64,000 nucleotides of DNA from positions 1 through 64,000 of the IMG/VR virus record IMGVR_UViG_3300049718_000055; one strand, written 5' to 3'. Numbering within the stretch: position 1 is the stretch's first letter; every line of letters begins with the position of its first letter. The notes below the pieces were generated by a model, which was given only the letters and a program-made list of their open reading frames with translations, was not told the DNA's origin and made no database searches. A program made the position numbers and the translations under genes. Positions 17,100-63,372 of the stretch are shown piece after piece. This stretch comes from a virus.

Positions 17100-17140
17100 C
17101 CCCAACGGATGGAGAGGCGGCGTTGGGGACACCGCCTCTC
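17100..17140 (-). other. Leader hairpin before initiator-like gene
   Basis: GAGAGGCGG and CCGCCTCTC pair around an 11-base loop on the minus strand, without a T run, between the gene at 17236 and the ribosome-binding site at 17090. A promoter candidate TTGCGC-N17-TAGTCT lies upstream near 17200-17230. Confidence 0.5.
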
Positions 17141-17235
17141 TGAAGGGCGCCACGCTCAGTTTCATCACTGCGCGTCACTTCCCGGCCACCAGACCGAGCA
17201 CCCTTAGACTAGCAAAATCTGCCAACACGCGCAAC

Positions 17236-31800: not shown

Positions 31801-34800
31801 GGGTCTGCTCTAACAGCACTCCAGAGTAAGGCGGTCCCAACACATACATCAATCTCGGCTTGTCACCTTTCGTGTCGTTCCAGTCGCTTCCGATACCTCC
31901 AGCCGGGATGCTCAGGTAGGCCATCGGAAGTTTCCCGTCTTGGAAGTCTTTTCGCACCTTTTCACGCCCGGTATCCGACTGGTTGACGCCGCTGTAGTTT
32001 CCAATCTTATCCCCGAATTCTGCCTGCAACGCATCGAAGACGTTCGGAAGTCTTGGAAGCAATCGGCTAAACTGGCCGTTCATGGCGTCATCCATCTGCT
32101 GAAATGCAGTTGGTTCACCGCTTCTCTCTTTCCTGAACAAGTCCTCATCTGTGGTCGGAGACGCGATGATTATGCTGTACCCCTTCTCTATGTCCCTCTT
32201 TGCCATTTCAATGACATTAGGAATCATTTCGCGCTCAAGAAACGCCTTCGTGAACTGCGCTTCGTATGCGGAAATACTTTTTGGAGATAGCCCCTCGGTA
32301 AGTTTTGTACGTGTCCGCGCTCTTTCCATCAGACCGGAAATCGTGTCAAGGCCGCGCTTCATGGCGCTTGTCATCGGCACAAATCCAAAGTGGACATTGA
32401 ACCCCTCGTAGGAGAGAGTCTGCGATACCATCTGGCCGCGTTGGATCAACTGCTGGCGCAACTTTGCCATCTTTACAGGATCGAGTTCGGCTACCAGCGT
32501 CTTGTCTTTGTAGTAAGTCTTGAAATTGCTCTTCAGGAATTCCTCGTATCCGCCCTTCTTCCAGAGTCCTAACTTCTCAAGGTATCCAACCTCCAGCGGA
32601 GTGTGGAATGGAGTTGCGCTCATGTACACGCCCTTCTTGGCGTTTTGCATGATCGCCATGAGCATTTGACCTTGGCTCATGCCCTTCTTATTCTCTGCTT
32701 TCTTGAACCAGTTCCTTGCCTCTCCTGCCTCATCCGCAATCACCATATCCCACTTGATGTTCTGGTACACGGGGTTTCTTAGAGCCGTCTGATAGCTCAC
32801 TCCATACGTTCCGTTCTCGATTCCAAATTTTGGAGTATCGAGACTGAGGTCAACGCCAAATGCTTTTGCCGGTTCATCTGCGGTTTTCTCCAATAATGGA
32901 CGGTTGCGGGTTATGTATAGGGTCAACGGCTTATCGCCGGCCTCTCGGTCTCGTCCAAACTCGCTGATAATCCCCATCGCTGTCCAGGTCTTGCCCGTTC
33001 CTGTTCCGCTGGCAACCAACGCTCCGTCGCCGCGCTGCAATGCCGACATAACGATCTGTACCGTAGGTGCCTGACCGGGATGCTTGTCTTCGTCGAGAAT
33101 CCTTGCCGTCCGCTCAGTAATAGCCCAGATCGGAAGAGGAGACTCTGTAGACATCCCCGCTTTGCCAGTCCGCTTCTTCCACGATTCTTCCGTTTCAGGG
33201 GCATCGTCCGCCGTCTTGCCGACAACCGGATCGTTCGTCTCCCTCAACGGAAGCATTCTGATCGGCTCAACGCGGTCTACACCGAATCCTCGTATGGCGG
33301 GACTTCCTCCGGCTCCGTCATGTCGTGGCATCCCCAACTCGGTTTTGCCAGAAACTCTGTCAACTGTTGGAGGTCTTTGAATTCCAGCAGCCTCATGAGT
33401 TCCTTCTCGTACTCGGTTGGCTCTCTCATTTTTTCTTTCCTCCATCACCTTATGCGCTAACTCAGGATCGGTCTTCGGAGCACGTTCTTCCGTTCCGTAT
33501 TCCGCTGCGATTTTGTTTTCAAGGTCGTCAATCTGCATCTGCAAAAACTGCTTGTCGAGAATCTTGTGGCGCGGCAATGCGGAAAGTTCTCTCTTCAATT
33601 GGTTTCGACGTGCTCCCATCTCTCCGCGAGTTTCAGGCTGTGATTCTTGGAACATGACGGTCGGCGGAACATTCCCTTTAGTGTTGAACTTTACACCCCA
33701 ATTGCCATCGTCCATCTCTATCAACTGCGCTGCATCAGCCTGAATTCCCGACGATCCATACCTCGTCTCTCGGCCTATAGGAGTGAAAGCCATAACAGCC
33801 TTCGCGTAATCGTCAAACGCAAAAACTACGGTTTTACCTGGGATGTTCTTTACATCCTTCGCGCCTTCGTGAGTACGGGCCTCAATCACCCCTTTCACAT
33901 CACGGCGGACAAAGATTGCCCCTGTATCTTTTCTTGCTTGCTCAATCGGATCTACAACATCCGAAGGATTCTTTATCCTCTTCTTGGCTTTTTCAGCCGC
34001 TTCGGTTTCGGTCAGAAACTCATCTGCCGGGTCCATGCCCGTAACATGGTAGATGCGGTCTAGTGTCTCCTTGGCATCGTCCGTCACTCTAAACGGACGA
34101 AGCGGGTCTTCACGCCACTTCTTGTAGACCTGCTGGAATATCTCCTTCAACTTCGCAAGAATCTTCCCGGTCTCAGCAGAGAACAACTTTGGATTCTCGT
34201 CGCGGTTATATTTCTCAATACCCCCAATAGCTCTTTCGCTGAATTCTTCAAGAACTTTCCCAACTAAATCTGCCCTGCTTTTTCCATCCCAAAGCGCCTT
34301 CGTCGGTCCCGTGATCGTATTCAAGGCGCGAAGGTCTTCATCGCTCAAAAAAGGCAAGAATGCGTGCCATAGTTCATGCGTGACAGTCGTCTTGTCAGCC
34401 TTCTCGTGGAGATACACACGCGATGTTTTACCGATTTCGTCCCACTCGGTTCGTCCCCTGCCTCTCTCGAAGTATTTGTCGCGCTCTATGCTGCTGAGAA
34501 TCTTTTTCCTCTCAAGAACCCACTTCAGAGCGTCTTTGCGTTCAACCCCCTCCGGTTTCTCAAACTCCCAAATTGCCTCTGAAACCAGATGGAAGTTCTT
34601 CATGTGCCATTTTGCGTTTTCCTTCGTTGATTCATCAGCGTAGACAAACGTCTTCAATCCTTCGTAATCAACATAGCCCTGCTCGCGCACTTGATTGAGC
34701 AACACATCCTTGGCAACTTCTTTTTCGCTACGAGTCTTCGGCGGCGGCTTGATTCCCTTTTCCGTTTCGGCCTTCGGTTCGGCTGGTGGCTCGATTCCAA

Positions 34801-37800
34801 TTTTTGGAATCTCTTCTGCTTTTACCTCTGGCTGCGGTTCTGGCTTCTTCTCCTCTTTAGGAGCCTCATAACGGTTTTGCAGAGCCGCTTCAAATTCCTC
34901 CTGCGTTACCGGCTCAAACTTCTTCCCCTGTGATTTTGCGATCTTCTCCAACTCTGGACGAAAAGCAACATTGAAATAGTCCGCGGCGGTGTGGAGTTCT
35001 TGCCCTTCTACTTTCGGAGCAAACAACATTTCCATCCCCGGCTCACCAACAATCATGTCATTCAAGGCGCCATTGAGACGTGTCGTTTTTGAATCAAGAA
35101 GAGCGACATAGACAGCTTGCGTAACGCGGCTCGGCTCGTCTGGTTTACCTAAGAAGAAATCTCCGTTCCCATAGACGTGATTCCATGCCGGTATCGGCTT
35201 GTCGCCTTCTCTCCTGAATCTTCGAGTCTTTGCCGCCGCCGAAACAGCCTCAGTAACTTTCTCTGTGAGACCTGGATAATAAGCTCTCAGTGCTGTTACC
35301 GATCCAATTGCCTTTGTCAGAGAGGATTCTGCATCAGTTCCGCTTATCAGCCGCACAGACTCTACATCTAGAATATGAGATCCGACAAGAGCGAGAACAA
35401 ACTTATCCTTCCCCGCCTTGTTGAGAGTGGCATCCTCCCCAACGCTATCGAACCATGCCGCATTTTCGGTAGGTGGAATATGGAAATACTCTCTAGCTTT
35501 TTTGGCAAACCAATACGGATCATCGTCAATCGCCGCTCTTACGGTCGAGATGTCGTTGCCAGCTATTTTACTGGCAATCTCACTTAGGATTCCATCCTTC
35601 CCATCCAAACGCTCTTGATGGTCGGCATCGGAAAGTAGTTTCCCGTTGCTTAACGCCTCTACGTTTTCTCCTACCTGGGCGGAACTGCGGTCGTTGAATA
35701 ATCTTCCAATTCTAGCCGCTTCACCCACGGTGTCTATCGGCTTATCCAAGACCCGTACAGGGATGTAGGTTCTTCCATCATCGGGAACGTGTTTAATACC
35801 TACCTTAGCGGAGAACTTTGCTACGGCATCATTGAAAACAATCATTTCCGCATCGCGGGCCTTCGTATCCCCCATCCGAGAAATGTTCTCAAGCCACTTC
35901 TTGAGCCGTAGAAGTCTTGTGTTCCCTCCAATTACACGGCCATACGAATCGAGAATCGCTGGACCATTCTCCGGCCCATATCCTGTATCAAAATAAAGCC
36001 GATGCGTGAAGTTTTCAGGCTGAGCTTCCCCTAAGACATCTTTCGTCCGATTCTCATCGAAATCTCTGTACTGCATTTCCTTTGGAACATACTCTTCGTT
36101 GTCCTCCAGATTGTTTCCATTCCACCTGTGAGAGACAATAGGAGCTTCAATGTCCATAAGAGCGTACTGCCCCGGGTGAGATTCCTTCCCTTTGTTGACC
36201 TGGGTAGGATCGCCACGACGGGCTATAAGAATTCCCCCTCCACTTGGATAATCGCCCTTACCTGCGGCTTTCCCTACCGCATCCGCGGTTTGCTGCACTG
36301 CACGATGAAGCGTGTCCGTTGCCTCTTTTACGGCTTGTGCCCTCTTGTCAATATCCTGTTCCGTAGTGCCGGCGTTGACATCAAACGCATCACCTATCGA
36401 CCGAACAACCTCAGCAACAGCGGCCTCCTGCCGACCCTCTGCCGCCTGAACGTACTCCTTTGCCTCTTCCGCGTTACGAGGTTCCGGCGCGGGACTTCCC
36501 GCCCTGTCATTGACCCCTTGAGTCGCTTGCCGATTGTTCTCAACCCACACGGATTTAGATGCGGCCTCCGCTAACTGCTCCGGCTTATTGAAAACGATGC
36601 TGTCTCCCTTGCCAACAATCCTGCGCACTACATCGCTTGGGTTTAAGGGATTGAGGTCGTGCTGTGCGCCTCCAGAGGAAAGATACAAGTCTCCGTTTTT
36701 CCTCTCGCTTACGGTCCAAGTGCGCCCCTTCCAGTTAGCGTCTTGAACTGTGTTCCCCGGCTGCAACTGAGCGATCCTCGCCAGAGGATCTTCGCTGCCA
36801 GAGAGTTTCTGACGAACCAATGCTTCGACCGGAACACCTTCCCTGTCGGCTACCTCTTGAAGTCTTCCGGCCGCATATTCAGGATTGCTTGCCCAACCAG
36901 CGTCTCCGACCTGGGTGAGAAGATTTATAAGTGACTGCTCGGTGTCTGGCGCCGGACCCTGCTCTCCCTCTTGCGGATTTGTGCGCTCTGCGCGGCTCTG
37001 CCGGCGCCGGTTCGAGTAATCCCTCACACGCGCCAGTTTCTCTTCAGGAATAGGCTCTGCCCCTGTCGCCAGCAACTCTTGGTCAATCGAAGCAACCGCC
37101 CGCTGTGCGTCCCTGTCCCGCTCTTCCCGAGACAACCTTTCTTCTCTTGTCATCTCCCCGTAGCGGATACGTCCATAAGCCGCTAAATTCATTGCCAGAT
37201 TAGAGTAAATTCCATCCTTCTTCAAAGGAATTTTTTGTCCATCTGGACCATGAAGAAGCCCGTCGGCCCCAAGTTCCCAAACATTGCCTCTGCGGTCAAC
37301 AATCCTGTCTCCAGACCGCGTGAGCATATTCAGGTTTTCGTTGGTCAGATCCCATGCAGACGCTTCAGCCTGGGAGAGAGTCGCATCTTTCTTCTCGTAG
37401 TCCACTCCAGACTTTTCAAAGGCTTCATCGAATTCGTGGTTGAATTGCTCTCTTCCATTTGCGAACGGACCTTCTACGCCCTCACCACGAGCAGCGTCAT
37501 GCTCGTCTGGTAGACGCTCATCACCGCCAATCCCGGTCATGTCTTGAGCGTGGCGAGAATCAATTTCCTTCGCAATCAACTGCTCTGTGACATTTCCTAG
37601 ATGATCTTCCTTTGCGGCATCTTCGGCTGTTGTGGTCCTGAGAGCTTGAATCTTGGCAAGCGTTCTCGCCGACTCCTCATCCTCAACACTCGCGGCCGTC
37701 TCTGCTGATCCGAAGTACCCTGTGGAATTTAGATACTGCTTCTCCCCTGTTTCCTCGTCTTGGACATAAACCCCAAACCCGCTGCCGACTGGCTCGACGC

Positions 37801-39679
37801 CGATATACGCTTTCTGCTCAAGACGGGTTACGGGGCCATAAACCTCTTCGCCATCAACAACCGTCTTCGGAATTACTTCCGTGGCTTGTGGGCGCGGAGT
37901 CTCTTTCTCACGCTCCTCTCTAGCCTTTACGTTCCGCTGCCTTGCGGCCTCGTTGTCGGAAATGATTTTCTCGCGCTTTACTGTCTCCGCCTTTTTGTTC
38001 TCCTCTACGGCTTTGCGGATTGACTCCTGAACCGCGCTCTCATGCTGCCTTGCAACAAGCTCTTCCCGGTCTGCATGGATTTTCCTTACAGCCCGTTCCG
38101 CCGCAATCGGATTCCAGGATTCTCTTAATGCTGTGCTGTGACGATATTGAATCCGTTTCAGGTTTCTTTCGTCTGCCTTCCCTATGAGATCATGCGCTCT
38201 CTGGAAATAAGGGTCATCGTTCCATACCTTGTCGAGTACAATCGACTGCTCTTGCGGAGTTTTTAATTGCCCAAATTTCTTCCCGTCAAATAGTTCCTTA
38301 GAGGCATCATCAAGATGGCTCGTGACTACCGCCTTGGCAGCATCTTCTTTAATTCCATGCGCCAGCATTGCAAGATTGCCAAGACCGGAAAGGCCAAATT
38401 CAAGCGTTTCTGAAATATCCCCCTTCTTTGCCGCTTCCATTGTCTGCTGATAGTCCTGCCCTACTCCAGCGGCCATCTGAATCTTGAAGCCATAATCAGC
38501 AAGAGTGGAGACGGTTCTGACTGTTCTCGCAACAGCAATAGGAGCTTCCCATCCCATTTGTTCTGGAAGGCTTGCGCCCCGTGAGGCCACGATAATAGCC
38601 ACCATTGCAGGATTGGTTAGAGTTTCCCCAAGCCGCATCGAGGCATTTGAAATTCCGGCATTACCTTTTGCTACTATTCCTTTCCACTTACTTGTCTCTC
38701 CAACCCTGTCGGCCCATGTATTGTTTTTTGCCCTGATAAGGTCTGTGTCCCCTCCTTCAATACCTACGGATTTTGATGCGAGAGAGACTAGGTTGGGATG
38801 CTCCGCGTGTGGCTCTGGAATGCCCAGCAGTCTAGCGGTATTCGCTATTCCTCCCTTGATTTCATCCCACCAATTTCCGCCGGCAACTTCGAGCCTCTTC
38901 GTTGCTCTGGCAAGATCGGTAAGTCCTGCGTATTCCTGCTTTCGCTCCTCATTCCACCCTTGCTCACTGGCATAGGCATACCCTTCAGCATAGTGCTTCG
39001 CATACTCCTCTGGGGTAGAAAATGAGTGATACGCTATCTCCGCCGGGTCCGCAATTGTACGAGAGGTGTCAAAGCGATGATTTTTAAGGTCTGATTCTTC
39101 TTTTGCCTTGTGATCTTGCGCCCTCTTCAATGCGCTCTGGTATACGCCTCCCTGCTCATCTGGCGTGAGGGTTTTCTTCTCTGCATCTTCCCACTGCAAA
39201 GACATAGCATATTCTTCACCCCTTGCGGGATTTAGATGATGCAGTTGCACACCATCCCTGTATCGGCTGACTCTTTCAATTGCCCTGTCTTTGCTTTGCC
39301 CTTCGTTTATAGTGCGGGCATAGATTCTCTGCTCGGGTGTCATCCACGAATCGTCATACGTTCCGCTCTGCATACTGCGGGCATTTTCCGATTCGACTGA
39401 CGAAGGCCCAATTGTCGCATGGTGAGGGCCGGCGCCTGTCGCTTGGAGAATCTTTTCCTGTGGGGTCTGAACAGCGGTTGCACCGTGCTTTTCAGCCAGT
39501 GCCGCGAAGTCTGTCTTTGGGGTCTTACTTACATTTTGAATAACAGGTTGGGCAGCTTGAGACTTCGACGAACCTCCAAATTGCTTGGCGAGACTCTGGT
39601 AATCGACGTTTGGGCCTTCCTTCTTTTGCCCAACTACGCCACCAAATTGTCCTGCGAGTTTTTCATAATCAGTCGGCAT
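28838..39679 (-). CDS. Giant polyvalent phage protein (helicase, ParB-like, zincin)
   Basis: 3613 residues, one frame. Three N-terminal copies of DYxxLAxQFGG (residues about 4-65). Long helical region to about 1150. ParB/DdrB-like domain about 1230-1430 (IPVRVLDKPIDTVGEAARIG). HELWH zincin motif near 1770. SF2 helicase about 2200-2650: SGTGTGKTW, MVIADEAG, YMSATPFHTP, and C-terminal motor with LEQTLGRPWRDG. The last 900 residues are helical with a hydrophobic segment LLPFFLLYPAAGFALMNL near 3440, and the chain ends in IQPPPK. This mix is typical of polyvalent proteins packaged in virions and ejected with DNA to protect it or remodel host DNA. The start overlaps the upstream stop (TGATG). Confidence 0.85.
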   Translation of the reverse strand: MPTDYEKLAGQFGGVVGQKKEGPNVDYQSLAKQFGGSSKSQAAQPVIQNVSKTPKTDFAALAEKHGATAVQTPQEKILQATGAGPHHATIGPSSVESENARSMQSGTYDDSWMTPEQRIYARTINEGQSKDRAIERVSRYRDGVQLHHLNPARGEEYAMSLQWEDAEKKTLTPDEQGGVYQSALKRAQDHKAKEESDLKNHRFDTSRTIADPAEIAYHSFSTPEEYAKHYAEGYAYASEQGWNEERKQEYAGLTDLARATKRLEVAGGNWWDEIKGGIANTARLLGIPEPHAEHPNLVSLASKSVGIEGGDTDLIRAKNNTWADRVGETSKWKGIVAKGNAGISNASMRLGETLTNPAMVAIIVASRGASLPEQMGWEAPIAVARTVRTVSTLADYGFKIQMAAGVGQDYQQTMEAAKKGDISETLEFGLSGLGNLAMLAHGIKEDAAKAVVTSHLDDASKELFDGKKFGQLKTPQEQSIVLDKVWNDDPYFQRAHDLIGKADERNLKRIQYRHSTALRESWNPIAAERAVRKIHADREELVARQHESAVQESIRKAVEENKKAETVKREKIISDNEAARQRNVKAREEREKETPRPQATEVIPKTVVDGEEVYGPVTRLEQKAYIGVEPVGSGFGVYVQDEETGEKQYLNSTGYFGSAETAASVEDEESARTLAKIQALRTTTAEDAAKEDHLGNVTEQLIAKEIDSRHAQDMTGIGGDERLPDEHDAARGEGVEGPFANGREQFNHEFDEAFEKSGVDYEKKDATLSQAEASAWDLTNENLNMLTRSGDRIVDRRGNVWELGADGLLHGPDGQKIPLKKDGIYSNLAMNLAAYGRIRYGEMTREERLSREERDRDAQRAVASIDQELLATGAEPIPEEKLARVRDYSNRRRQSRAERTNPQEGEQGPAPDTEQSLINLLTQVGDAGWASNPEYAAGRLQEVADREGVPVEALVRQKLSGSEDPLARIAQLQPGNTVQDANWKGRTWTVSERKNGDLYLSSGGAQHDLNPLNPSDVVRRIVGKGDSIVFNKPEQLAEAASKSVWVENNRQATQGVNDRAGSPAPEPRNAEEAKEYVQAAEGRQEAAVAEVVRSIGDAFDVNAGTTEQDIDKRAQAVKEATDTLHRAVQQTADAVGKAAGKGDYPSGGGILIARRGDPTQVNKGKESHPGQYALMDIEAPIVSHRWNGNNLEDNEEYVPKEMQYRDFDENRTKDVLGEAQPENFTHRLYFDTGYGPENGPAILDSYGRVIGGNTRLLRLKKWLENISRMGDTKARDAEMIVFNDAVAKFSAKVGIKHVPDDGRTYIPVRVLDKPIDTVGEAARIGRLFNDRSSAQVGENVEALSNGKLLSDADHQERLDGKDGILSEIASKIAGNDISTVRAAIDDDPYWFAKKAREYFHIPPTENAAWFDSVGEDATLNKAGKDKFVLALVGSHILDVESVRLISGTDAESSLTKAIGSVTALRAYYPGLTEKVTEAVSAAAKTRRFRREGDKPIPAWNHVYGNGDFFLGKPDEPSRVTQAVYVALLDSKTTRLNGALNDMIVGEPGMEMLFAPKVEGQELHTAADYFNVAFRPELEKIAKSQGKKFEPVTQEEFEAALQNRYEAPKEEKKPEPQPEVKAEEIPKIGIEPPAEPKAETEKGIKPPPKTRSEKEVAKDVLLNQVREQGYVDYEGLKTFVYADESTKENAKWHMKNFHLVSEAIWEFEKPEGVERKDALKWVLERKKILSSIERDKYFERGRGRTEWDEIGKTSRVYLHEKADKTTVTHELWHAFLPFLSDEDLRALNTITGPTKALWDGKSRADLVGKVLEEFSERAIGGIEKYNRDENPKLFSAETGKILAKLKEIFQQVYKKWREDPLRPFRVTDDAKETLDRIYHVTGMDPADEFLTETEAAEKAKKRIKNPSDVVDPIEQARKDTGAIFVRRDVKGVIEARTHEGAKDVKNIPGKTVVFAFDDYAKAVMAFTPIGRETRYGSSGIQADAAQLIEMDDGNWGVKFNTKGNVPPTVMFQESQPETRGEMGARRNQLKRELSALPRHKILDKQFLQMQIDDLENKIAAEYGTEERAPKTDPELAHKVMEERKNERANRVREGTHEAAGIQRPPTVDRVSGKTELGMPRHDGAGGSPAIRGFGVDRVEPIRMLPLRETNDPVVGKTADDAPETEESWKKRTGKAGMSTESPLPIWAITERTARILDEDKHPGQAPTVQIVMSALQRGDGALVASGTGTGKTWTAMGIISEFGRDREAGDKPLTLYITRNRPLLEKTADEPAKAFGVDLSLDTPKFGIENGTYGVSYQTALRNPVYQNIKWDMVIADEAGEARNWFKKAENKKGMSQGQMLMAIMQNAKKGVYMSATPFHTPLEVGYLEKLGLWKKGGYEEFLKSNFKTYYKDKTLVAELDPVKMAKLRQQLIQRGQMVSQTLSYEGFNVHFGFVPMTSAMKRGLDTISGLMERARTRTKLTEGLSPKSISAYEAQFTKAFLEREMIPNVIEMAKRDIEKGYSIIIASPTTDEDLFRKERSGEPTAFQQMDDAMNGQFSRLLPRLPNVFDALQAEFGDKIGNYSGVNQSDTGREKVRKDFQDGKLPMAYLSIPAGGIGSDWNDTKGDKPRLMYVLGPPYSGVLLEQTLGRPWRDGTKSDVHVVFLGTDAAPQVRIMKELVAPRMRSIRAAVHGIKDSLATAMENYSDVERTRAEQDTLNFANGNEIEVKAADFGVRHAGRVVGIDSWDAIQIPPASEAMNKGLRTGAQEGADWTNMYQDKERAFTPPPTNVKAEKAINDIAESAAKNPDIPKETIALGAAHASEVAGITPEGIDPAEAGSYAMKGELQSHGFTYDPETGEWSGPLYHAKKMLGRDTSGLEERRLGESEEPTFGQRIKEKIRIPAINAARKIGMQDKVRRWFDKEYANYQKRTLGMNFRMRALGVSRKSGYLEKTGAVFDKLDDYQQKQMGISGNFQMRLIDIFKENKLEWNSDGPVEGKVKEWLRRPGHDDVREVWDVKEGRVASNDPRINKAAEELRLLMDEANELATKEGVHREDGSIYDVPNNPHYMPHETDWDMELTDSETGEIRTLSEVCDDKTLDDVAKLRYLEKERQRLKVGTGDAHRWLGELSRDRERRLKRPRNPNVTTKRTVNHPFYKKDIWALNKYFDQLGSAVALESTLGHDMGKVGSLIADVPSSALRKDLTENLKLYFEYQDWNTRVGRMYRFMQPFEVITKMSLSPISVAFHNVHAGQLGLKPWFVGNYRMFRHPKERMREKFYVGVVTPRMNPALIEGKNFGVAKEMLKATGFSDVYNWQRATVGEIAWAWMDLDVLSDLKAGGKRAETSRRLLKDRMLLSDDEINKAVANNRWDEESKWKAERVFANKVAFTEQPEQMPRMAKLSMSEGLGDAEKNLHAVAHAAYNLQSFQIKSYSGIKEWYFDEVFHHRNFRPLLPFFLLYPAAGFALMNLKAGVKHGAQKAFEGATGQSHTRDSWDNLLEDYRDLEKHPWSGALKICLDSLFIGMANDRMKMWTDIGMMAAEGEEKKLYKMMGYMATDELDRLVGSIYKDIFMAGSTVPKAADDTSKLKNPTVKKFGKNLEKESAKEAKRIAWPLGTIPKVNEWSGTKKIQPPPK

Positions 39680-41361
39680 CACTTAATCCCGGCTGCTTGC
39701 TTGAAGGCGTCAGCCGATTTCTGGTCTGGGAATGTGTAGGTATTTCCGTCTGGAGCTTGAATCGCTATGGTCCCCTGCTGCTGTCCCCCTGTTGTCCCAC
39801 CAATCGACTTTACGGCAGAGTCGTACTCTTCCGCAACGCTTTGCTTTGCGCCGTCAAGAAACTTCTTCGCTCTGGTGTAGGCCGCATCTTTGGCCTGTTG
39901 AGCAGCCTCGAGAATCGACGGGTCGCCAGTAGCCGCCGTCTTTTGAGCCGCTGCAAATGCCTTGTCCGCAGCGGCAAGGTCGGCCTTGTATTGATTCTCA
40001 GCCTTCCGGTAGCCTTCCTTCTGCTTCTGAGTAGCCTGCCGGGTTACTGAGGCTGTGAGAGCCGTCTGCTTGCCTCCCGGCGGCGGGGTGATTCCAGCCT
40101 TTGCGGTCTTGCCAGCCTGCGGTGGACGGCCAATCCCTTGCGCTCCCTGCCCGGTAGGAGACGCCTTTGCCGTTGGAGGCTTACTGATCCCTGCCGAAGC
40201 GGGAGAAGCCTGCCTCGAAGCCGCTGGAGGTGGCTGTATGGCCACCGGAGTGGCCTTGCGCGTCGCTGTGGTCTTCCTGTCTCCCTGCGGGGTGGTAGAG
40301 GACGTACTCGTGGTGGCTGTCTGAAGAGTTTTATCCGCCCTCGCTTGCTGCCTTGCTGCCGTCAGTTGCTCTGTGGTGGCGTTTTCTCTCGTTACCCCAA
40401 ACTTTTCCTTTAGAAACTTATCCTCTGCTTCGGCGTCGGAACCGGCCTTTGGCGCCGCGCTCCCTGCCGTTGCGTTCCATCCCTCCGGCTGTCTCCCAGG
40501 AACATACCAACCCCTACGGCTTCCGTCTGGAGAGGAGTATTCCTTCGGAGTACCCCTTCCAGATTCCCGCTCCCTTTGCTCGATTCTTCCCTTTGCCGCA
40601 TCGATTGGCTTGACGCCGGTCTCAGGGTCTACGTCAAACACCTGCTTCTTTACTTCGGGCGGGAGAATAGCCTGTTGTTTTTCATCAAGGCTGCCGTATA
40701 GAGCAACCATATTGGAGTCCGCAGCGGCTTGCTGCTTGCTCTGGACTTCCTGTTGTTGTTCCTGCAACTTAACATTTTGTTCTTTCCCTTGCTGGGTCTG
40801 ACCTAGCGGCCTTGCCTGCATGGTCATCAAAGCAAGTTGGGGAACGATATGCTGGTTCGCCGCAAGAAAATCTCGAATGTTGCTGAATCCCGCGCTGGCT
40901 TGTTTCTTGTCTTTGCCGCCCGTTGAACCAGAGCCTCCCGATGCGCTCTTCTTCCCCTTCTGTGTCTTATCAGGAATCATTATCGAACTGATCCCAGCTA
41001 GAGCCGTGTCTGTTGTTCCCTTATATGCAATGAAAGCAGGGTCTTTTTCGTCGTTCGGCTTCGCTTCTCCAGAGTCGATTTTCTGCTGGTACTGATCCCT
41101 CGCTGCCCCTATCGCCGCTTGCGCAGAATTGTACATTGCCTCTGCTTGAGCTTGCTTCCGCTGTTCTTTTACCTTGTGCCCCTGCATGAAACCCTTGAGC
41201 ATGGCATCGCCGATTGCCAGAGCACCTGTTCCACGTCTTCCAAATTGGCCATTTAGAGGTTGCGCAGGCCCGCCGCCGCCGGTATTGTTCATGGGCAGTT
41301 GAACAAGCGGAATCGTACTGACATACGGCTTGATCTCGGTTTGGGGAGTATTTACTGGCAA
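39679..41361 (-). CDS. Disordered virion-associated protein
   Basis: 560 residues, Gln/Ala/Lys/Pro-rich. Helical segments at 55-105 and 440-500 flank low-complexity linkers containing repeated short motifs (AIQPPP, GISKPP, GIGRPP, GITPPP). The C-terminus DGNTYTFPDQKSADAFKQAA looks like a small folded module. Starts TTG (41361) after GAGGTAAGACG. Coupled to the giant gene, so probably an internal virion partner (inference). Confidence 0.6.
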   Translation of the reverse strand: MPVNTPQTEIKPYVSTIPLVQLPMNNTGGGGPAQPLNGQFGRRGTGALAIGDAMLKGFMQGHKVKEQRKQAQAEAMYNSAQAAIGAARDQYQQKIDSGEAKPNDEKDPAFIAYKGTTDTALAGISSIMIPDKTQKGKKSASGGSGSTGGKDKKQASAGFSNIRDFLAANQHIVPQLALMTMQARPLGQTQQGKEQNVKLQEQQQEVQSKQQAAADSNMVALYGSLDEKQQAILPPEVKKQVFDVDPETGVKPIDAAKGRIEQRERESGRGTPKEYSSPDGSRRGWYVPGRQPEGWNATAGSAAPKAGSDAEAEDKFLKEKFGVTRENATTEQLTAARQQARADKTLQTATTSTSSTTPQGDRKTTATRKATPVAIQPPPAASRQASPASAGISKPPTAKASPTGQGAQGIGRPPQAGKTAKAGITPPPGGKQTALTASVTRQATQKQKEGYRKAENQYKADLAAADKAFAAAQKTAATGDPSILEAAQQAKDAAYTRAKKFLDGAKQSVAEEYDSAVKSIGGTTGGQQQGTIAIQAPDGNTYTFPDQKSADAFKQAAGIK

Positions 41362-49269: not shown

Positions 49270-49340
49270 TCAGCGAGGGGAGAATTGAACTCCCACCACA
49301 AGTTCCCAAGACTTGGATGCAACCATTACACCACTCACTG
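49270..49340 (-). tRNA. tRNA-Pro(TGG)
   Basis: CAGTGAG/CTCGCTG, CAAGT-CTTGGGA-ACTTG anticodon arm, T loop TTCAATT, encoded CCA. Confidence 0.92.
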
Positions 49341-49348
49341 ATTAAAAG

Positions 49349-49517
49349 TTATGCGTGACGGAATCAAACCGTCTCCACCCGCTCCAATGCGGGAGTGCTA
49401 TCCGTCCAGAGTCGTGTCGATCTTGAGCCGCTACGTATCGCCCCAAAACGCATTCCACTGTACTGCCTTCGCTACGCTCCGTCGAGCTTCACTTTGGCTT
49501 CATTACACCAACGCATA
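49349..49517 (-). tRNA. tRNA-like gene with about 97-nt insertion in the D loop
   Basis: TATGCGT (49517-49511) pairs perfectly with ACGCATA (49356-49350). GTGT-AATG at the 5' side and GATA-GCAC before the anticodon arm would form a normal D arm if about 97 nt between them were removed. Anticodon stem CCCGC/GCGGG encloses only 6 nt (ATTGGA), so the anticodon is not assigned. T arm GACGG-TTTGATT-CCGTC. No encoded CCA. Could be a disrupted pseudogene. Confidence 0.4.
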
Positions 49518-49522
49518 CTTGG

Positions 49523-49595
49523 TGCCGACTACCCGTATCGAGCGGGTTTCCATCGCTCTTCAGGCGATTGCTATGACCTCATCAGCTAAGTCGGC
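49523..49595 (-). tRNA. tRNA-Phe(GAA)
   Basis: GCCGACT/AGTCGGC, ATCGC-CTGAAGA-GCGAT anticodon arm, ACCCG T stem with CTCGATA loop, encoded CCA. Confidence 0.9.
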
Positions 49596-49603
49596 AAAAC
49601 TGG

Positions 49604-49676
49604 TGGACCTAGAGGGGCTTGAGTCCTCGACCTCCCCGGTGCAAACGGGGTGCTACTCCATCTGAGCTATAGGCCC
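49604..49676 (-). tRNA. tRNA-Ala(TGC)
   Basis: GGGCCTA/TAGGTCC, CCCCG-TTTGCAC-CGGGG anticodon arm, encoded CCA. T loop CTCAAGC is divergent. Confidence 0.88.
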
Positions 49677-49687
49677 GTAAAACTTGG

Positions 49688-49760
49688 AGGGAAAGGTGGG
49701 AGTTGGACCCACTAGAACCTGTTCCACAGACAGGCGCCGCACCGTTTGGCTTCAGTCCCC
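49688..49760 (-). tRNA. tRNA-His(GTG)
   Basis: CCTGT-CTGTGGA-ACAGG anticodon arm, GTGGG-TCCAACT-CCCAC T arm, encoded CCA. Acceptor stem GGGGACT/CTTTCCC has two mismatches. Confidence 0.78.
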
Positions 49761-49773
49761 ATAAAGCTGTTGG

Positions 49774-49842
49774 GGCCGGATGTGGGAATCTAACCCACCG
49801 CGCAGGCCGTACAAAGGGCTGCTGCTACTCAGAGCATCCGGC
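49774..49842 (-). tRNA. tRNA-Thr(TGT)
   Basis: GCCGGAT/ATCCGGC, reduced D arm, anticodon loop TTTGTAC with one stem mismatch, GTGGG-TTAGATT-CCCAC T arm, encoded CCA. Confidence 0.78.
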
Positions 49843-50391
49843 TCAGTTAAACGCATACCTCTTATCACCTTCGGAGTCCGTGAATAAAAACGGACCCCAC
49901 TCATTTACCTCGGCGCCGAGAGACCTCAACAAAAATCGCGGCGTGTGAATCGACTGCGGCAGCGGCCGGCGAAGCAACTTCATTCCAGCTTCCTCCGGCG
50001 TCCGGTCGGCCTTGCGGTGATTATCTTTGGCGCAACATGAAACCAAGTTGCTCCACGATGGCGATCCTCCTCTTGACTTTGGAATTATGTGGTCAAGAGT
50101 TAGTTCGCTAGTCTTGAACCTTTCTCCGCAATACATACACCTTTCTCCGTCACGAAGAAAAATGTTCTTGCGGCTTACAACTTGAAGCCTAATTGGGACG
50201 TGGCGATAAGCGCGAAGCCTGATTACCGATGGAGCATAGATTCCAAGTCCGCGATGGATAAGTACATCGGTAGGAACCTCAACCAGAGCAACACCTTTCG
50301 TAATAAGAGTCAGAGCCTTCTTAACTGAAACTATGCGAAGCGGCTCATACGATGCATTGAGAAGAAGTGTTGCGCTTTTTCCTATTGTCAT
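49843..50391 (-). CDS. HNH endonuclease
   Basis: 182 residues. RDGERCMYCGERFKTSELTL, DHIIPKSRGGSPSWSNLVSC and CAKDNHRKADRTPEEAGM give the McrA-type HNH core (CxxC, DHIxPxSRGG, W-N, CCxxxNxxK). The N-terminal 85 residues match the common phage/bacterial HNH family starting with LLLNASYEPLRIV. It lies in the tRNA array and is probably a free-standing homing nuclease. The stop is next to tRNA-Thr(TGT). The start overlaps the GIY-YIG gene. Confidence 0.85.
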   Translation of the reverse strand: MTIGKSATLLLNASYEPLRIVSVKKALTLITKGVALVEVPTDVLIHRGLGIYAPSVIRLRAYRHVPIRLQVVSRKNIFLRDGERCMYCGERFKTSELTLDHIIPKSRGGSPSWSNLVSCCAKDNHRKADRTPEEAGMKLLRRPLPQSIHTPRFLLRSLGAEVNEWGPFLFTDSEGDKRYAFN

Positions 50392-51163
50392 AGTCACCAC
50401 GCTCCCAACGTTCTTTCAGTAAAGCAGACATCTTCGCCTTAGTTTCTTCCTTGTGCTTCATACCTTTGTTTCCAGGTACTCTGCCTTTCCTGATTGCCGA
50501 CTGTTTAGCCCGTGTTTCTTCGGAAGCCTTTTTACCTGTCAGAGAGCGAGAAATCTTTGCTTTACTCTCTTCTGAAAGTTTCCTTCGTCTGTTCGCCGCA
50601 GAAATCTTCTCACTAAATCCCTGCGGTTTAGGTCTCCCCTTCAAAGCAGCAGATCGTTTTGCTTTTTCTTCCTCCGACATTGGGCCTAATTTCCGGCCCC
50701 TAAATGATGCCGACATACGCGCTTTGGTTTCTTCCGAACGCTTTGAACCAGTCCTAGATTTAATCATCTTGGCTATCGCCTCTGCTGTGTGTCTCAATCC
50801 CTTATGCACAGCAGATACTTTCGCTTTCATTTCGGCTGTTCTAACCGCTCCTGATCCTCCCTCGCCCCCATCTGTTCTATTTCTCAAGCATCCAGTTCCA
50901 AGGTTAATTCTCCCATGGAATTTTATTAGCTGCTTCTCCATGAAAAACGCTTCGTCCTCTGACAAATCTTTGGCAATAATTACAATCATCGATTTATCTT
51001 TTGGAGTACGTATCGCTTCAATAGGATTTTTCTTATAGGCTCTTAACCCGTGTCCTTTCCCTATGTAATAAGGAGAACCCGCTGGGCCGTGTTCGGAGGC
51101 AAAAGTCCTCACGTATTGGTATACGTAAAACCCAGAGATTACAGGTCTCCTATAGTTACTCAC
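50345..51163 (-). CDS. GIY-YIG-type homing endonuclease with NUMOD3 repeats
   Basis: 272 residues. GFYVYQYVRTF then YYIGKGHGLRAY is a GIY-YIG core variant; EAFFMEKQLIKFHG and LRNRTDGGEGGSG follow as in segment-type phage nucleases. Residues 125-265 hold several SEETKAKMSxxxxG-like NUMOD3 units that wrap DNA. Start taken at GTG 51163 just after tRNA-Thr(CGT) and a 53-residue gene. A homing nuclease between tRNAs is a known phage arrangement. Confidence 0.8.
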   Translation of the reverse strand: MSNYRRPVISGFYVYQYVRTFASEHGPAGSPYYIGKGHGLRAYKKNPIEAIRTPKDKSMIVIIAKDLSEDEAFFMEKQLIKFHGRINLGTGCLRNRTDGGEGGSGAVRTAEMKAKVSAVHKGLRHTAEAIAKMIKSRTGSKRSEETKARMSASFRGRKLGPMSEEEKAKRSAALKGRPKPQGFSEKISAANRRRKLSEESKAKISRSLTGKKASEETRAKQSAIRKGRVPGNKGMKHKEETKAKMSALLKERWERGDYDNRKKRNTSSQCIV

Positions 51164-51167
51164 TGTC

Positions 51168-51329
51168 TTACTCTCTTTCCTTAAAAGTGGAGCCGGGTAG
51201 CGAAATCGAATCGCTGTCTGTGGGATACGAATCCACTGCTCTGCCATCTGAGCTAACCCGACTATGTTTTTCTGCTAACCTCTTCCACACTTCTCGGAGA
51301 TCGGCATTCAAATGAAACCTGTGCGGCAT
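51168..51329 (-). CDS. 53-residue gene running through a tRNA
   Basis: MPHRFHLNADLREVWKRLAE looks protein-like for 24 residues; the frame then continues through the whole tRNA-Thr(CGT). A strong GGAGG lies 5 bases before the ATG but is part of the palindrome CTCCAAATTTTGGAG (51336-51350), which could mask it. Perhaps a gene truncated by tRNA insertion. Confidence 0.4.
   Translation of the reverse strand: MPHRFHLNADLREVWKRLAEKHSRVSSDGRAVDSYPTDSDSISLPGSTFKERE
51191..51262 (-). tRNA. tRNA-Thr(CGT)
   Basis: GTCGGGT/ACCCGGC, D arm GCTC/GAGC, anticodon loop TTCGTAT with one stem mismatch, GCGAT-TCGATTT-CGC-type T arm, encoded CCA. Confidence 0.85.
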
Positions 51330-51348
51330 GTCAACCTCCAAAATTTGG

Positions 51349-51419
51349 AGCGGTTTGCCGGATTTGAACCGGCGCTTTCGCCCTGGCAAGGCAACGTCTT
51401 ACCACTCGACTAAAACCGC
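51349..51419 (-). tRNA. tRNA-Gly(GCC)
   Basis: GCGGTTT/AAACCGC, TTGCC-TTGCCAG-GGCGA anticodon arm, GCCGG-TTCAAAT-CCGGC T arm, encoded CCA that forms part of a dispersed palindrome. Confidence 0.9.
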
Positions 51420-51427
51420 TTCACTGG

Positions 51428-51498
51428 CTCCGAGAGTAGGAGTCGAACCTACACAGCGAGCTTCAAAGACTCGCGGCCTACCGTTAACCGATCTCGGA
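51428..51498 (-). tRNA. tRNA-Gln(TTG)
   Basis: TCCGAGA/TCTCGGA, CGAGT-CTTTGAA-GCTCG anticodon arm, encoded CCA. Confidence 0.92.
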
Positions 51499-51508
51499 TC
51501 AAACTTGG

Positions 51509-51581
51509 CTGGGAAGGCAAGTCTCGAACTTGCTACCTTCCGGGTCAGAGCCGGACGTTCTACCCGTTGAACTTCTTCCCA
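51509..51581 (-). tRNA. tRNA-Gln(CTG)
   Basis: TGGGAAG/CTTCCCA, TCCGG-CTCTGAC-CCGGA anticodon arm, encoded CCA. Confidence 0.92.
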
Positions 51582-51593
51582 ACTTCAAACTGG

Positions 51594-51665
51594 CTGTGCA
51601 GGTGGGAGTCGGACCCACATCCTCTCGCTTAACAGGCGAACGCTCGACCATTGAGCTACCGCACA
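51594..51665 (-). tRNA. tRNA-Asn(GTT)
   Basis: TGTGCGG/CTGCACA, anticodon loop CTGTTAA, GTGGG-TCCGACT-CCCAC T arm, encoded CCA. First tRNA after the hairpin at 51668-51703. Confidence 0.9.
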
Positions 51666-51667
51666 TC

Positions 51668-51703
51668 AAAAAGCCCCTAACCGCTTATTCTCGGCTAGGG
51701 GCT
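51668..51703 (-). terminator. Terminator-like hairpin abutting a tRNA block
   Basis: AGCCCCTAGCCG and CGGTTAGGGGCT form a 12-bp stem with one mismatch, followed by TTTTT; tRNA-Asn starts 2-3 bases later. Confidence 0.85.
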
Positions 51704-51749
51704 TTTCCTCATTTGCTACGTTGTAGCAGTTGAATCTTTGCGCCCAAGC

Positions 51750-51812
51750 CTACACGGGATTACCGAACGCTTGTGGCGTTGTCGGCTGTCCGGTATGGGC
51801 TCGGTTCATCAT
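51750..51812 (-). CDS. 20-residue leader peptide, leaderless
   Basis: MMNRAHTGQPTTPQAFGNPV starts 7 bases after the -10 box of a perfect promoter and ends before the terminator-like hairpin. The rest of 51704-51860 shows no other gene. Confidence 0.45.
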   Translation of the reverse strand: MMNRAHTGQPTTPQAFGNPV

Positions 51813-51819
51813 GTTTCCT

Positions 51820-51848
51820 ACTTTACCGCCGTTCGCAATTTCTGTCAA
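51820..51848 (-). promoter_or_regulatory. Promoter TTGACA-N17-TAAAGT
   Basis: TTGACA at 51848-51843, TAAAGT at 51825-51820, 17-base spacer, inside the tRNA array. Confidence 0.8.
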
Positions 51849-51860
51849 ATCATTTTCTGG

Positions 51861-51934
51861 TAGGGTTGGTGGAACTCGAATCCACTAGGACATGATTGAA
51901 GGTCATGGTGCTCGTCCGCTTTGCATTCAACCCC
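51861..51934 (-). tRNA. tRNA-Glu(TTC), C33
   Basis: GGGGTTG/CAACCCT, anticodon arm CATGA-CCTTCAA-TCATG with C at position 33, encoded CCA. Confidence 0.82.
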
Positions 51935-51942
51935 ATAACTGG

Positions 51943-52016
51943 CGCGGTAGACGGAAATCGAATCCGTGTACACGATCTTGAGAGAATCGCTGGAGAACCA
52001 GCACCCCTGCTACCGC
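51943..52016 (-). tRNA. tRNA-Glu(CTC)
   Basis: GCGGTAG/CTACCGC, D arm GGGG-TGCTGGTT-CTCC, CGATT-CTCTCAA-GATCG anticodon arm, encoded CCA. Confidence 0.88.
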
Positions 52017-52020
52017 ATGG

Positions 52021-52092
52021 CGGTCCCACGGGGAGTTGAACCCCGAACGCCTCTTAGACAGAGAGGAATCATTGCCGTTAGACCATGGGACC
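52021..52092 (-). tRNA. tRNA-Asp(GTC)
   Basis: GGTCCCA/TGGGACC, CCTCT-CTGTCTA-AGAGG anticodon arm, CGGGG T stem, encoded CCA. The 132-base gap 52093-52224 beyond it shows no tRNA; it contains the palindrome CGGACTCGAGTCCG. Confidence 0.92.
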
Positions 52093-52224
52093 AAAAGTTC
52101 CGTTTTGTTTGCCTAGCGGCCCAGTCTCCCATCGCATTAGCAGAATTCCGACTGAGGTTCATCCACTGCGGACTCGAGTCCGTTTGCTAGACTCTTGCCA
52201 GAACGGTACTGGCCTTTGGATTGG

Positions 52225-52296
52225 TTGCGTGGGGAGGACTCGAACCTCCGGTCTCCAGCTTATGAGGCTGGCGAGATGCCGCTTCTCTACCTCGCC
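52225..52296 (-). tRNA. tRNA-Met(CAT)
   Basis: D arm GAGA/TCTC, CCAGC-CTCATAA-GCTGG anticodon arm, GGAGG T stem, encoded CCA. Acceptor GGCGAGG/CCACGCA is mismatched at 1-72 and one inner pair; a 1-72 mismatch is a feature of initiator tRNAs, but the anticodon stem lacks the initiator GGG/CCC. Confidence 0.8.
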
Positions 52297-52336
52297 ATTT
52301 CAGTATGCCACTACTCTTTCATGTTGGCAAGTATGG

Positions 52337-52419
52337 TGCATCGCCCCAGGCTCGAACTGGGCTGCTCCGAAGAGCGGCAGGTTTACAGTCTGCTGGCCGT
52401 CCACCCGACCATGCGATGC
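52337..52419 (-). tRNA. tRNA-Tyr(GTA)
   Basis: GCATCGC/GCGATGC, anticodon loop CTGTAAA, class II variable arm GCTC-TTCG-GAGC as expected for bacterial Tyr, encoded CCA. Confidence 0.9.
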
Positions 52420-52426
52420 AAAATGG

Positions 52427-52513
52427 AGGAAGGTGGAGTAATCGAAACCCTACGCCATCGCTGACGCACCACGGTTTTCAGGACCGTTCGCCGACCATTC
52501 AGCGGCACCTTCC
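52427..52513 (-). tRNA. tRNA-Ser(TGA), C33
   Basis: GGAAGGT/ACCTTCC, D arm GCCG/CGGC, ACGGT-CCTGAAA-ACCGT anticodon arm with C33, long variable arm. Confidence 0.82.
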
Positions 52514-52520
52514 AAACTGG

Positions 52521-52605
52521 CGGAGACGATCCGATTTGAACGGATGGAACCTTGCGGTTCGGAGGTTTAGCAAACCTCTGGATTAGACCGCTCTCCCACG
52601 TCTCC
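52521..52605 (-). tRNA. tRNA-Ser(GCT)
   Basis: GGAGACG/CGTCTCC, GAGGT-TTGCTAA-ACCTC anticodon arm, variable arm GAACC-GCAA-GGTTC, encoded CCA. Confidence 0.92.
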
Positions 52606-52613
52606 AAACTTGG

Positions 52614-52686
52614 TGCCGATGGTCGGGTACGAGCCGACAAGCCTGAAGGTTTGAGCTTCAGAGGTATTCCTTCCCATCACATCGGC
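52614..52686 (-). tRNA. tRNA-Leu(CAA) with short variable loop
   Basis: GCCGATG/CATCGGC, TGAAG-CTCAAAC-CTTCA anticodon arm, variable region about 5 nt instead of a class II arm, GTCGG-CTCGTAC-CCGAC T arm, encoded CCA. Confidence 0.82.
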
Positions 52687-52694
52687 AAAACTGG

Positions 52695-52767
52695 TGCGGG
52701 TGGAGGGACTCGAACCCCCATGAGACTGATCCTAAGTCAGCCGCGTATTCCATTCCGCCACACCCGC
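52695..52767 (-). tRNA. tRNA-Leu(TAG) with short variable loop
   Basis: GCGGGTG/CACCCGC, Leu-like D arm (GGCGGAATGGAATACGC), CTGA-CTTAGGA-TCAG, variable region about 6 nt, encoded CCA. Confidence 0.85.
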
Positions 52768-52781
52768 ACATCTCAAACTGG

Positions 52782-52851
52782 AGTACCGGGCCGGACTTTA
52801 ACCGGCTTCAACGGTTTTGCAGACCGTCCGCTCGCCCTTCGCTTCCGGTAC
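52782..52851 (-). tRNA. tRNA-Cys(GCA)
   Basis: GTACCGG/CCGGTAC, ACGGT-CTGCAAA-ACCGT anticodon arm, GCCGG-TTAAAGT-CCGGC T arm, encoded CCA. Confidence 0.9.
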
Positions 52852-52855
52852 ATGG

Positions 52856-52930
52856 TGCGGGTGAACGGTGTCGAACCGATCCTAAACTGGGCTTAAACCA
52901 GTTGCCTCTTCCAACGTGGGCTACACCCGC
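52856..52930 (-). tRNA. tRNA-Leu(TAA) with short variable loop
   Basis: GCGGGTG/CACCCGC, ACTGG-TTTAAGC-CCAGT anticodon arm, variable region about 5-6 nt, encoded CCA. First tRNA after the hairpin at 52937-52966. Confidence 0.82.
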
Positions 52931-60591: not shown

Positions 60592-60894
60592 CTACTTCTC
60601 CCTCACCCACCAGCAGTTCTCAACATTGTCCCGAAGATGCGTACCTGCGGCATTCAACACAAACCGCGAATCCAGCGTTCCAGGCGCCACAATCTCCAAG
60701 GACCGCGACCGGTTGCGAGAATCCTTCAGCAAACCCTTCTCCTTCAGATGCCCGATATGCTTGGAAACCGTTGCTAATGATTTCAGCCCGAGTCCGTCCG
60801 CAATTTCATCGAACGATGGAGAGTAGCGATTTGTCTCAATGAACCCCTTTATGAAGTCGAGAACTCGTCTTTGACTCTTCGTGACAGCCGCCAT
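60592..60894 (-). CDS. LexA-like DNA-binding domain protein
   Basis: 100 residues. AVTKSQRRVLDFIKGFIETN, SPSFDEIADGLGLKSLATVS and KHIGHLKEKGLLKDSRNRSR reproduce the winged-helix N-terminal domain of LexA, but the autoprotease domain is absent. It could occupy SOS-type operators without being cleaved. GTGGAGGGGAATAA precedes the ATG. Confidence 0.8.
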   Translation of the reverse strand: MAAVTKSQRRVLDFIKGFIETNRYSPSFDEIADGLGLKSLATVSKHIGHLKEKGLLKDSRNRSRSLEIVAPGTLDSRFVLNAAGTHLRDNVENCWWVREK

Positions 60895-61973: not shown

Positions 61974-62774
61974 TTACCCTCCGTTTTCCAAAGTTTGGAG
62001 TTCGCGCGGATCTGTACCTTTTACGTGCGAGAGAGTTCCATCTTCAGATCTCGTCCACTGACGCGCTTCATTGATGTCCATTTTCTTACTGACCTCAGTG
62101 TGCAAGTCGCATCCAATCGAGTCTGCAATCACACTCAAGCAAATAGCCACGTCCGCCAATTCTTCCTTAGCGTGTCCATGATTCCCGCAATAAAGATCAA
62201 CCTCAAGCTCGTCTAGTTCTTTCCGTAGACGCCTCAACCTATCCATAGGGAAACCTCCGCCATCGTTTTTCTTGTACCAAGTTCCAATACGGCGTTGCTC
62301 TGCCGAACGAAGACGGGGAGAGGTCTTATTCAACTGGCTTCGGATTTCTCCCAAGTCTGCTGTGACTAAATCAGCCATCTTCACCATGAGGTCCGGTTCT
62401 CTCATTCCAGGGATGTAGACATACACGTGGCAGTTTGCGCCTACAGCCCAGCCCATTTCCATCGAAGCACTAGGACCGCACGGCATGACCATCACGCAAG
62501 CGTCTGCCTGTTCGAGAGCATCCATGTCTCGATGAAAACCCTCAATAGCTCGTGGATTTTTCAGGCCATCAATGTACTTCTGAATATCACTCGGCCATTT
62601 CTGCCAATCAGGATCAATCTCCGACCAGTGGAATCCTCCCGGCCCGTGGATTCCTTCACCCCAACCGTCACCATCTTCTTTGAAGTCATAGACTCTGTGA
62701 CCGTCTTTTCTTAGAACCTTTACAACCTCTGGCTGGAAATCATTTCTCCAAGAACTCGCAACGTAAATGTTCAT
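61974..62774 (-). CDS. Nucleoside deoxyribosyltransferase-like/MazG-like fusion
   Basis: 266 residues. Residues 1-140 read as a nucleoside 2-deoxyribosyltransferase fold: MNIYVASSWRNDF, then DMDALEQADACVMVMPCGPS and MEMGWAVGAN, with the S-x-x-x-E-x-G-x-A-x-G catalytic pattern. Residues about 185-250 (DRLRRLRKELDELEVDLYCG then KEELADVAICLSVIADSIGC) match MazG-like nucleotide pyrophosphohydrolases. Suggests base exchange coupled to nucleotide hydrolysis, for nucleotide-pool control or modified bases. GGAGGGATA precedes the ATG. The C-terminus QTLENGG is encoded by a dispersed palindrome. Confidence 0.75.
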   Translation of the reverse strand: MNIYVASSWRNDFQPEVVKVLRKDGHRVYDFKEDGDGWGEGIHGPGGFHWSEIDPDWQKWPSDIQKYIDGLKNPRAIEGFHRDMDALEQADACVMVMPCGPSASMEMGWAVGANCHVYVYIPGMREPDLMVKMADLVTADLGEIRSQLNKTSPRLRSAEQRRIGTWYKKNDGGGFPMDRLRRLRKELDELEVDLYCGNHGHAKEELADVAICLSVIADSIGCDLHTEVSKKMDINEARQWTRSEDGTLSHVKGTDPRELQTLENGG

Positions 62775-62840
62775 TATCCCTCCATATTAGGAATCTTACC
62801 ATGTTGGCAGATATTTATGTGAGGGGTCTTTTCCATCTAC

Positions 62841-63203: not shown

Positions 63204-63231
63204 TTGCAATACAACAGAATTCTGATAATCT
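63204..63231 (+). promoter_or_regulatory. Promoter TTGCAA-N16-TAATCT with TG extension
   Basis: TTGCAA 63204-63209, TGA then TAATCT 63226-63231. A CAGAATTCTG palindrome (about 63215-63224) in the spacer is a candidate operator shared with the divergent minus promoter. Confidence 0.6.
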
Positions 63232-63237
63232 GATGAT

Positions 63238-63372
63238 GTGGGCGGATGGCCAGACCGTCCTCGCGTCTCTCTTCGATTCCTAAGCAGCTTCGCCCTGTAG
63301 ACGCCGCCCACACCTTTTACCTCGTTGCTCCAACCTATCCTCCAAGCCCCGGCCCCACCGGGGCTCTTTTTT
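63238..63372 (+). ncRNA. Small structured RNA with tRNA-like stem and anti-SD stretch
   Basis: GTGGGCG (63238-63244) pairs with CGCCCAC (63305-63311) followed by ACC. Inside are GATGG-CCAGA-CCGTC and a GCGTCT/AGACGC stem. An unpaired pyrimidine stretch with TATCCTCC (about 63336-63343) is complementary to GGAGGATA-type ribosome-binding sites, and a strong terminator ends the unit. No reading frame of note. Confidence 0.55.
63346..63372 (+). terminator. Intrinsic terminator of the small RNA
   Basis: GCCCCGG-CCCCA-CCGGGGC then TCTTTTTT. Confidence 0.92.

What the first reader, a model, noticed from the sequence alone, without database searches (positions are those of the whole stretch)
63204..63372. 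Small RNA with tRNA-like closing stem and unpaired anti-Shine-Dalgarno stretch
Seen: promoter, GTGGGCG/CGCCCAC stem ending in ACC, internal hairpins, single-stranded TATCCTCC and a textbook terminator, with no frame. Most genes here use GGAGG, so the RNA could bind their start regions or mimic the 16S 3' end.
Basis: partly seen in the sequence, partly recalled or inferred. Interest (0 to 1): 0.62.

Follow-up and report, generated by a model that had tools for sequence, protein, structure and literature searches.

The report
Conserved phage small RNA, C-rich linker
A soil phage, probably of Acidobacteriota, carries a small RNA gene of about 135 bases that is also kept in at least three related phage lineages and probably pairs with messenger RNAs through an exposed C-rich stretch; it is a real but fairly ordinary kind of regulator whose targets are unknown.

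Summary
The feature is real. At 63204-63372 a weak sigma-70-like promoter, a 7-bp closing stem (63238-63244 with 63305-63311), an exposed linker holding CCUCC, and a strong terminator form a stand-alone unit of about 135 nt. Comparison, not shape, makes the case. Homologues sit at the same place, beside the end of the head-gene block, in three other phage lineages: L080/L085/L086 (one sequence), L106 and L108. All keep a promoter, a GGGCG..CGCCC stem, a CUUUU..GUUG-like linker and a terminator whose pairs covary. Two lineages lack the 60-nt inner domain. In L106 no gene follows, so the RNA is not a leader there. The tRNA-like reading fails: ARAGORN and Rfam find nothing, and two relatives have only a 5-bp hairpin. 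CCUCC beside the terminator is conserved and unpaired in three of four lineages; L108 lacks it. Best reading: a phage-encoded trans-acting sRNA pairing through its CU-rich linker with ribosome-binding sites, built like RF02278 and mmgR RF00519 but below both Rfam cut-offs. No target stands out. 'Most genes use GGAGG' is overstated (30 of 117 predicted starts). Existence is well supported, mechanism inferred.

The parts
63204..63231 (+). promoter: TTGCAA (63204-63209), 16-nt spacer, TG-extended TAATCT (63226-63231)
   Evidence: Sequence; weak match to consensus and not listed by the scan; better promoters at the same place in L108 and L086
63238..63372 (+). the small RNA, about 135 nt
   Evidence: Start inferred 7 nt after the -10; end at the T-run; homologues in L080/L085/L086, L106, L108
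63238..63311 (+). 5' structured domain: closing stem 63238-63244/63305-63311 around two predicted hairpins (63244-63260 and 63263-63304)
   Evidence: same closing stem and similar-sized insert in L108; reduced to a 5-bp hairpin in L086 and L106
63312..63344 (+). single-stranded linker ACCUUUUACCUCGUUGCUCCAACCUAUCCUCCA; conserved CUUUU, GUUG, UCC; CCUCC at 63339-63343
   Evidence: Alignments A4, A7; accessibility
63345..63372 (+). intrinsic terminator AGCCCCGG-CCCCA-CCGGGGCU + U-run
   Evidence: three of seven pairs changed on both sides among four lineages, none broken
63403..63849 (+). downstream neighbour, not part of the RNA: GATACTGCCTACATG promoter/start and stand-alone receiver-domain protein (63415-63849)
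   Evidence: Pfam Response_reg 1.9e-17; motif recurs in the window; in L086 the same motif precedes a different 68-aa ORF

Best explanation
A stand-alone, phage-encoded small RNA. Transcription starts at about 63238 from a sigma-70-type promoter and ends at the intrinsic terminator near 63372 (supported by sequence and conservation, not by a transcript). The RNA has a 5' hairpin domain, a ~33-nt single-stranded CU-rich linker and a terminator hairpin. Most likely it works in trans: the linker, above all CCUCCA and the CUUUU..GUUG..UCC segment, pairs with G-rich ribosome-binding regions of phage and/or host mRNAs and lowers their translation (inferred). The large inner domain is an accessory: two lineages lack it. 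I put about 0.9 on a real small RNA gene and about 0.5 on action through the linker at ribosome-binding sites.
For: Synteny and homology: blastn of the 646-nt intergenic region against related phages finds this RNA and one other short leader, nothing else. Same anatomy in L080/L085/L086 and L106 and L108 (fold z -4.6). Terminator covariation: 3 pairs changed on both sides, 100% paired, 11 of 500 shuffles as high. L106: the RNA's terminator abuts the 3' end of the convergent head gene and no gene follows, so the RNA acts on its own. CCUCC unpaired about 1.0, 0.98, 0.97 in the window, L086, L106; in a scan of these phages only 18 distinct terminators were found, 4 with CCTCC within 30 nt upstream, 3 of them this RNA. 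Known RNAs with this build act on ribosome-binding sites: RF02278 RNAs have CU-rich unpaired stretches complementary to ribosome-binding sites, and one of them attenuates growth when overexpressed (PMC5688073); NfeR1 silences mRNAs through CCUCCUCCC motifs (PMC10746234).
Against: No transcript evidence. L108 lacks the CCUCC by the terminator. No phage target stands out: mean duplex energy at 117 starts is only slightly better than shuffled linkers (4 of 60 as good) and the best site is within the shuffled range once the antisense self-hit is set aside. The conserved 5-bp stem never varies, so it gives no covariation. Four lineages is a small sample, and most hits of the viral pattern scans turned out to be chance.
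Confidence: 0.5

Rival explanations
1. A 5' leader with an attenuator: the structured RNA and terminator control read-through into the downstream + strand genes (receiver protein in the window, membrane protein in L108).
For: Genes follow on the same strand in the window, L086 and L108; in L108 no clear second promoter is seen before the next gene.
Against: In L106 nothing follows but the antisense of the head gene; in the window and L086 the next gene has its own conserved promoter-like TAnnCTGCCTACATG start; downstream genes are unrelated between lineages; no clear antiterminator pairing was seen.
Confidence: 0.17
2. A small RNA that acts by another route than ribosome-binding sites: protein sponge, polymerase binding, OOP-like regulator or replication-linked RNA next to a replisome-organiser-like gene.
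For: L108 lacks CCUCC; the CUUUU..GUUG segment is conserved in all four; in L106 the divergent neighbour resembles a replisome organiser N-terminus (E 0.0068, below cut-off), as lambda OOP lies beside O.
Against: That neighbour is missing beside the RNA in the window and L108; unlike OOP (52 bases overlap cII, PMC5869508) the RNA does not overlap a coding gene.
Confidence: 0.22
3. The conserved bases belong to the other strand: GGAGG is the Shine-Dalgarno sequence of a very small gene.
For: GGAGG followed by a start codon at 5-6 nt in the window (17 aa) and L106 (28 aa).
Against: Peptides and lengths differ, L086 has poor spacing, L108 has no such frame; minus-strand frames score as non-coding in the window; it does not explain promoter and terminator on the + strand.
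Confidence: 0.05
4. A functional tRNA-like RNA (acceptor-stem mimic).
For: 74-nt domain closed by 7 bp in the window and a like one in L108.
Against: Not called by ARAGORN or Rfam; no T-arm; no CCA; two lineages keep only a 5-bp hairpin.
Confidence: 0.02

Closest known systems
Betaproteobacteria toxic small RNA, RF02278 (double-hairpin sRNAs of Burkholderia)
   Same: 5' hairpin, CU-rich unpaired stretch complementary to ribosome-binding sites, terminator hairpin, own promoter
   Different: 15.6, 21.3 and 12.2 bits for window, L086, L106 against a cut-off of 50; phage-borne, other phylum; large inner domain in window and L108
mmgR / suhB sRNA, RF00519
   Same: hairpin, exposed CUCCCU stretch, GC-rich terminator; L106 scores 28.7 bits, E 2e-4
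   Different: Below cut-off 41; unrelated Acidobacteriota terminators reach about 20 bits too, so most of the score is the terminator
alpha-r14 / 'cuckoo' sRNAs (NfeR1)
   Same: exposed anti-Shine-Dalgarno motif, trans silencing (PMC10746234)
   Different: three hairpins each with CCUCCUCCC in the unpaired region; here one CCUCC in a linker between hairpins
lambda OOP RNA
   Same: short phage RNA with its own promoter and terminator, opposite to the main operon
   Different: OOP is antisense to cII (PMC5869508); this RNA overlaps no gene in L106 or the window

Membership tests
RF02278 Betaproteobacteria toxic sRNA | score at or above Rfam gathering cut-off (50 bits) | tested here: not met
   15.6, 21.3, 12.2 bits
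RF02278 Betaproteobacteria toxic sRNA | CU-rich unpaired stretch complementary to ribosome-binding sites | tested here: met
   CCUCC unpaired in window, L086, L106; not beside the terminator in L108
RF02278 Betaproteobacteria toxic sRNA | inhibits growth when expressed | not testable with these tools
   needs an expression experiment
RF00519 mmgR/suhB | score at or above cut-off (41 bits) | tested here: not met
   16.8 (window), 14.8 (L086), 28.7 (L106); control terminators 19-20 bits
tRNA | cloverleaf called by ARAGORN or Rfam RF00005 | tested here: not met
   24 tRNAs called elsewhere in the window, none here
intrinsically terminated small RNA gene | promoter, terminator, no ORF, conserved above flanks | tested here: met
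intrinsically terminated small RNA gene | detected transcript | not testable with these tools
   no RNA data available here

The most novel reading that the evidence does not exclude
The phage makes a decoy of the ribosomal anti-Shine-Dalgarno sequence to depress translation of host mRNAs broadly during infection, while phage genes with weak or leaderless starts escape.
Probability: 0.06. Interest if true: 0.8.

Novelty: new member of a known kind. Interest (0 to 1): 0.42.

Why it matters
To my knowledge few small RNAs are known from phages of uncultivated soil bacteria. A conserved one, with an exposed complement of ribosome-binding sites and no Rfam family, is a defined candidate for RNA-level control of infection, and the alignments and covariance model made here allow it to be sought in metatranscriptomes.

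Tried and rejected
Rfam at gathering cut-off: only tRNAs. Similar DNA in known phages: chance matches only. Closing-stem pattern in viral contigs: 66 loci, inside open frames without terminator, rejected. Two tail patterns in viral contigs gave the true relatives plus hits in coding sequence. L091 hairpin 7597-7657 (20.9 bits): no T-run, no promoter seen, not at the same place, left out. L121: rejected on reading. L201 4940-5010 (14.4 bits, hairpin + CUCC + terminator at the right place): possible fifth member, unproven. RNA model in 396 Acidobacteriota genomes: the six matches are GC-rich terminators at chance level for that many genomes. Relatives by the receiver protein: none. Phage target search: no specific target.

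Full report
Setting. The window is bases 1-64000 of an 88,632-base IMG/VR virus record. Nearly all genes run on the minus strand; the RNA lies on the plus strand in a 640-nt intergenic region between a minus-strand deoxyribosyltransferase/MazG-like gene (61974-62774) and a plus-strand stand-alone receiver-domain gene (63415-63849). The head-gene block follows, also on the minus strand; its nearest gene is an SU10-adaptor-like protein (L002:2004-2894). A relative of the major capsid protein (50% identity) occurs in a contig of an Acidobacteriota MAG, a weak hint at the host.

Observation. Taken singly they are weak: 389 seven-base inverted repeats of like spacing occur in the window, and the promoter is not listed by the consensus scan. 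The fold as a whole is unusual (z -3.4). ORFs that cross the region score as non-coding.

Relatives. The capsid protein fetched 64 related viral loci. blastn of the intergenic region against the loci fetched found matches in L080/L085/L086 (one sequence) and L106. Read out in full, they show the same order: promoter, GGGCG hairpin, CGCCCAyAyCUUUU-GUUGC linker, CCUCCA, terminator, at the same place next to the end of the adaptor-like gene. A covariance model of the three gave a weak hit in L108 that is a clear homologue on reading: TTGCAA-17-TATACT, the same GUGGGCG/CGCCCAC stem round a 60-nt insert, linker AACCUUCUUAGUUGUCCUGCAAG and a 12-bp terminator. Alignment of the four to the model keeps every pair; three of seven terminator pairs are changed on both sides (the alignment was fitted to the model, and four sequences are few). 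A search by the adaptor-like protein returned the same phages plus L201, a doubtful fifth case. Phages about 50% identical in the adaptor protein (L094-L100) have other genes there.

What is constant and what varies. Constant: promoter, five GC pairs of the first stem, CUUUU or CUUCUU then GUUG, a terminator. Varying: the 60-nt inner domain (present in window and L108, absent in L086 and L106), the terminator's sequence, the flanking genes, and CCUCC next to the terminator (window, L086, L106 but not L108). That L108, the most distant, has the insert suggests that the long form is older and that the short forms lost it; this is inference from few sequences.

Leader or independent RNA. In L106 the terminator lies against the 3' end of the convergent adaptor-like gene and no gene follows. 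In the window and L086 the next gene carries its own conserved start region TAnnCTGCCTACATG, and the genes differ. An independent RNA fits best.

Mechanism. The linker is predicted single-stranded, and CCUCC fully so in three lineages. RNAs of this build are known to pair with ribosome-binding sites: the RF02278 double-hairpin RNAs (PMC5688073) and NfeR1 (PMC10746234). I therefore favour translational repression in trans. Against it: L108, and the lack of a target above background in the phage itself. GGAGG precedes only 30 of 117 predicted starts, so the RNA would not touch most phage genes by this core alone; host mRNAs could not be tested, as the host is unknown.

Classification. Not a tRNA. 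Below cut-off for RF02278 and RF00519; control terminators from Acidobacteriota give similar partial scores, so no membership is claimed. No homologue was recognised among 396 Acidobacteriota genomes, with stricter filters that may lose weak matches. The RNA is best called a new phage small RNA family of a known kind.

Noticed in passing
window 63403 (+), 26974 (-), 6329 (-), 28819 (-), 28347 (-): A recurrent promoter-like motif TAtnCTGCCTACA, at 63403 and 26974 directly before or near a start codon (leaderless?); 14 matches against 6.7 expected at three mismatches. The same motif precedes a 68-aa ORF in L086.
   Followed up: partly
window 63415-63849 (+): Stand-alone CheY-like receiver domain in a phage, in a slot that holds an unrelated 68-aa ORF in L086.
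   Followed up: partly
window 63846-63998 (+): Small ORF MIVQICSIKRGIINPPEPLE..., with a homologue (MIVEVWSLKRGIIDPPEPLE...) at the same place in L086.
   Followed up: partly
window 62775-62815: Leader before the minus-strand gene 61974-62774, conserved in L086 before an unrelated DUF5131 gene (35 nt, 89%), with CTGCCAACATG; may be a shared promoter or operator.
   Followed up: partly
window 46729-52930 (-): Array of at least 24 tRNA genes with a gene of 409 aa that looks by eye like an RtcB-type RNA ligase inside it (47906-49135).
   Followed up: no
window 60592-60894 (-): 100-aa protein with only a LexA-type DNA-binding domain (Pfam 3e-16), conserved in L106 18159-18464; candidate phage repressor.
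   Followed up: no
L096 about 17000-17600 (-), also L099 and L100: A peptide-deformylase-like frame near the place where the RNA lies in the window's relatives (read by eye).
   Followed up: no
window 28838-39682 (-): Single 3614-aa reading frame, by eye a polyvalent phage protein with helicase-like motifs.
   Followed up: no
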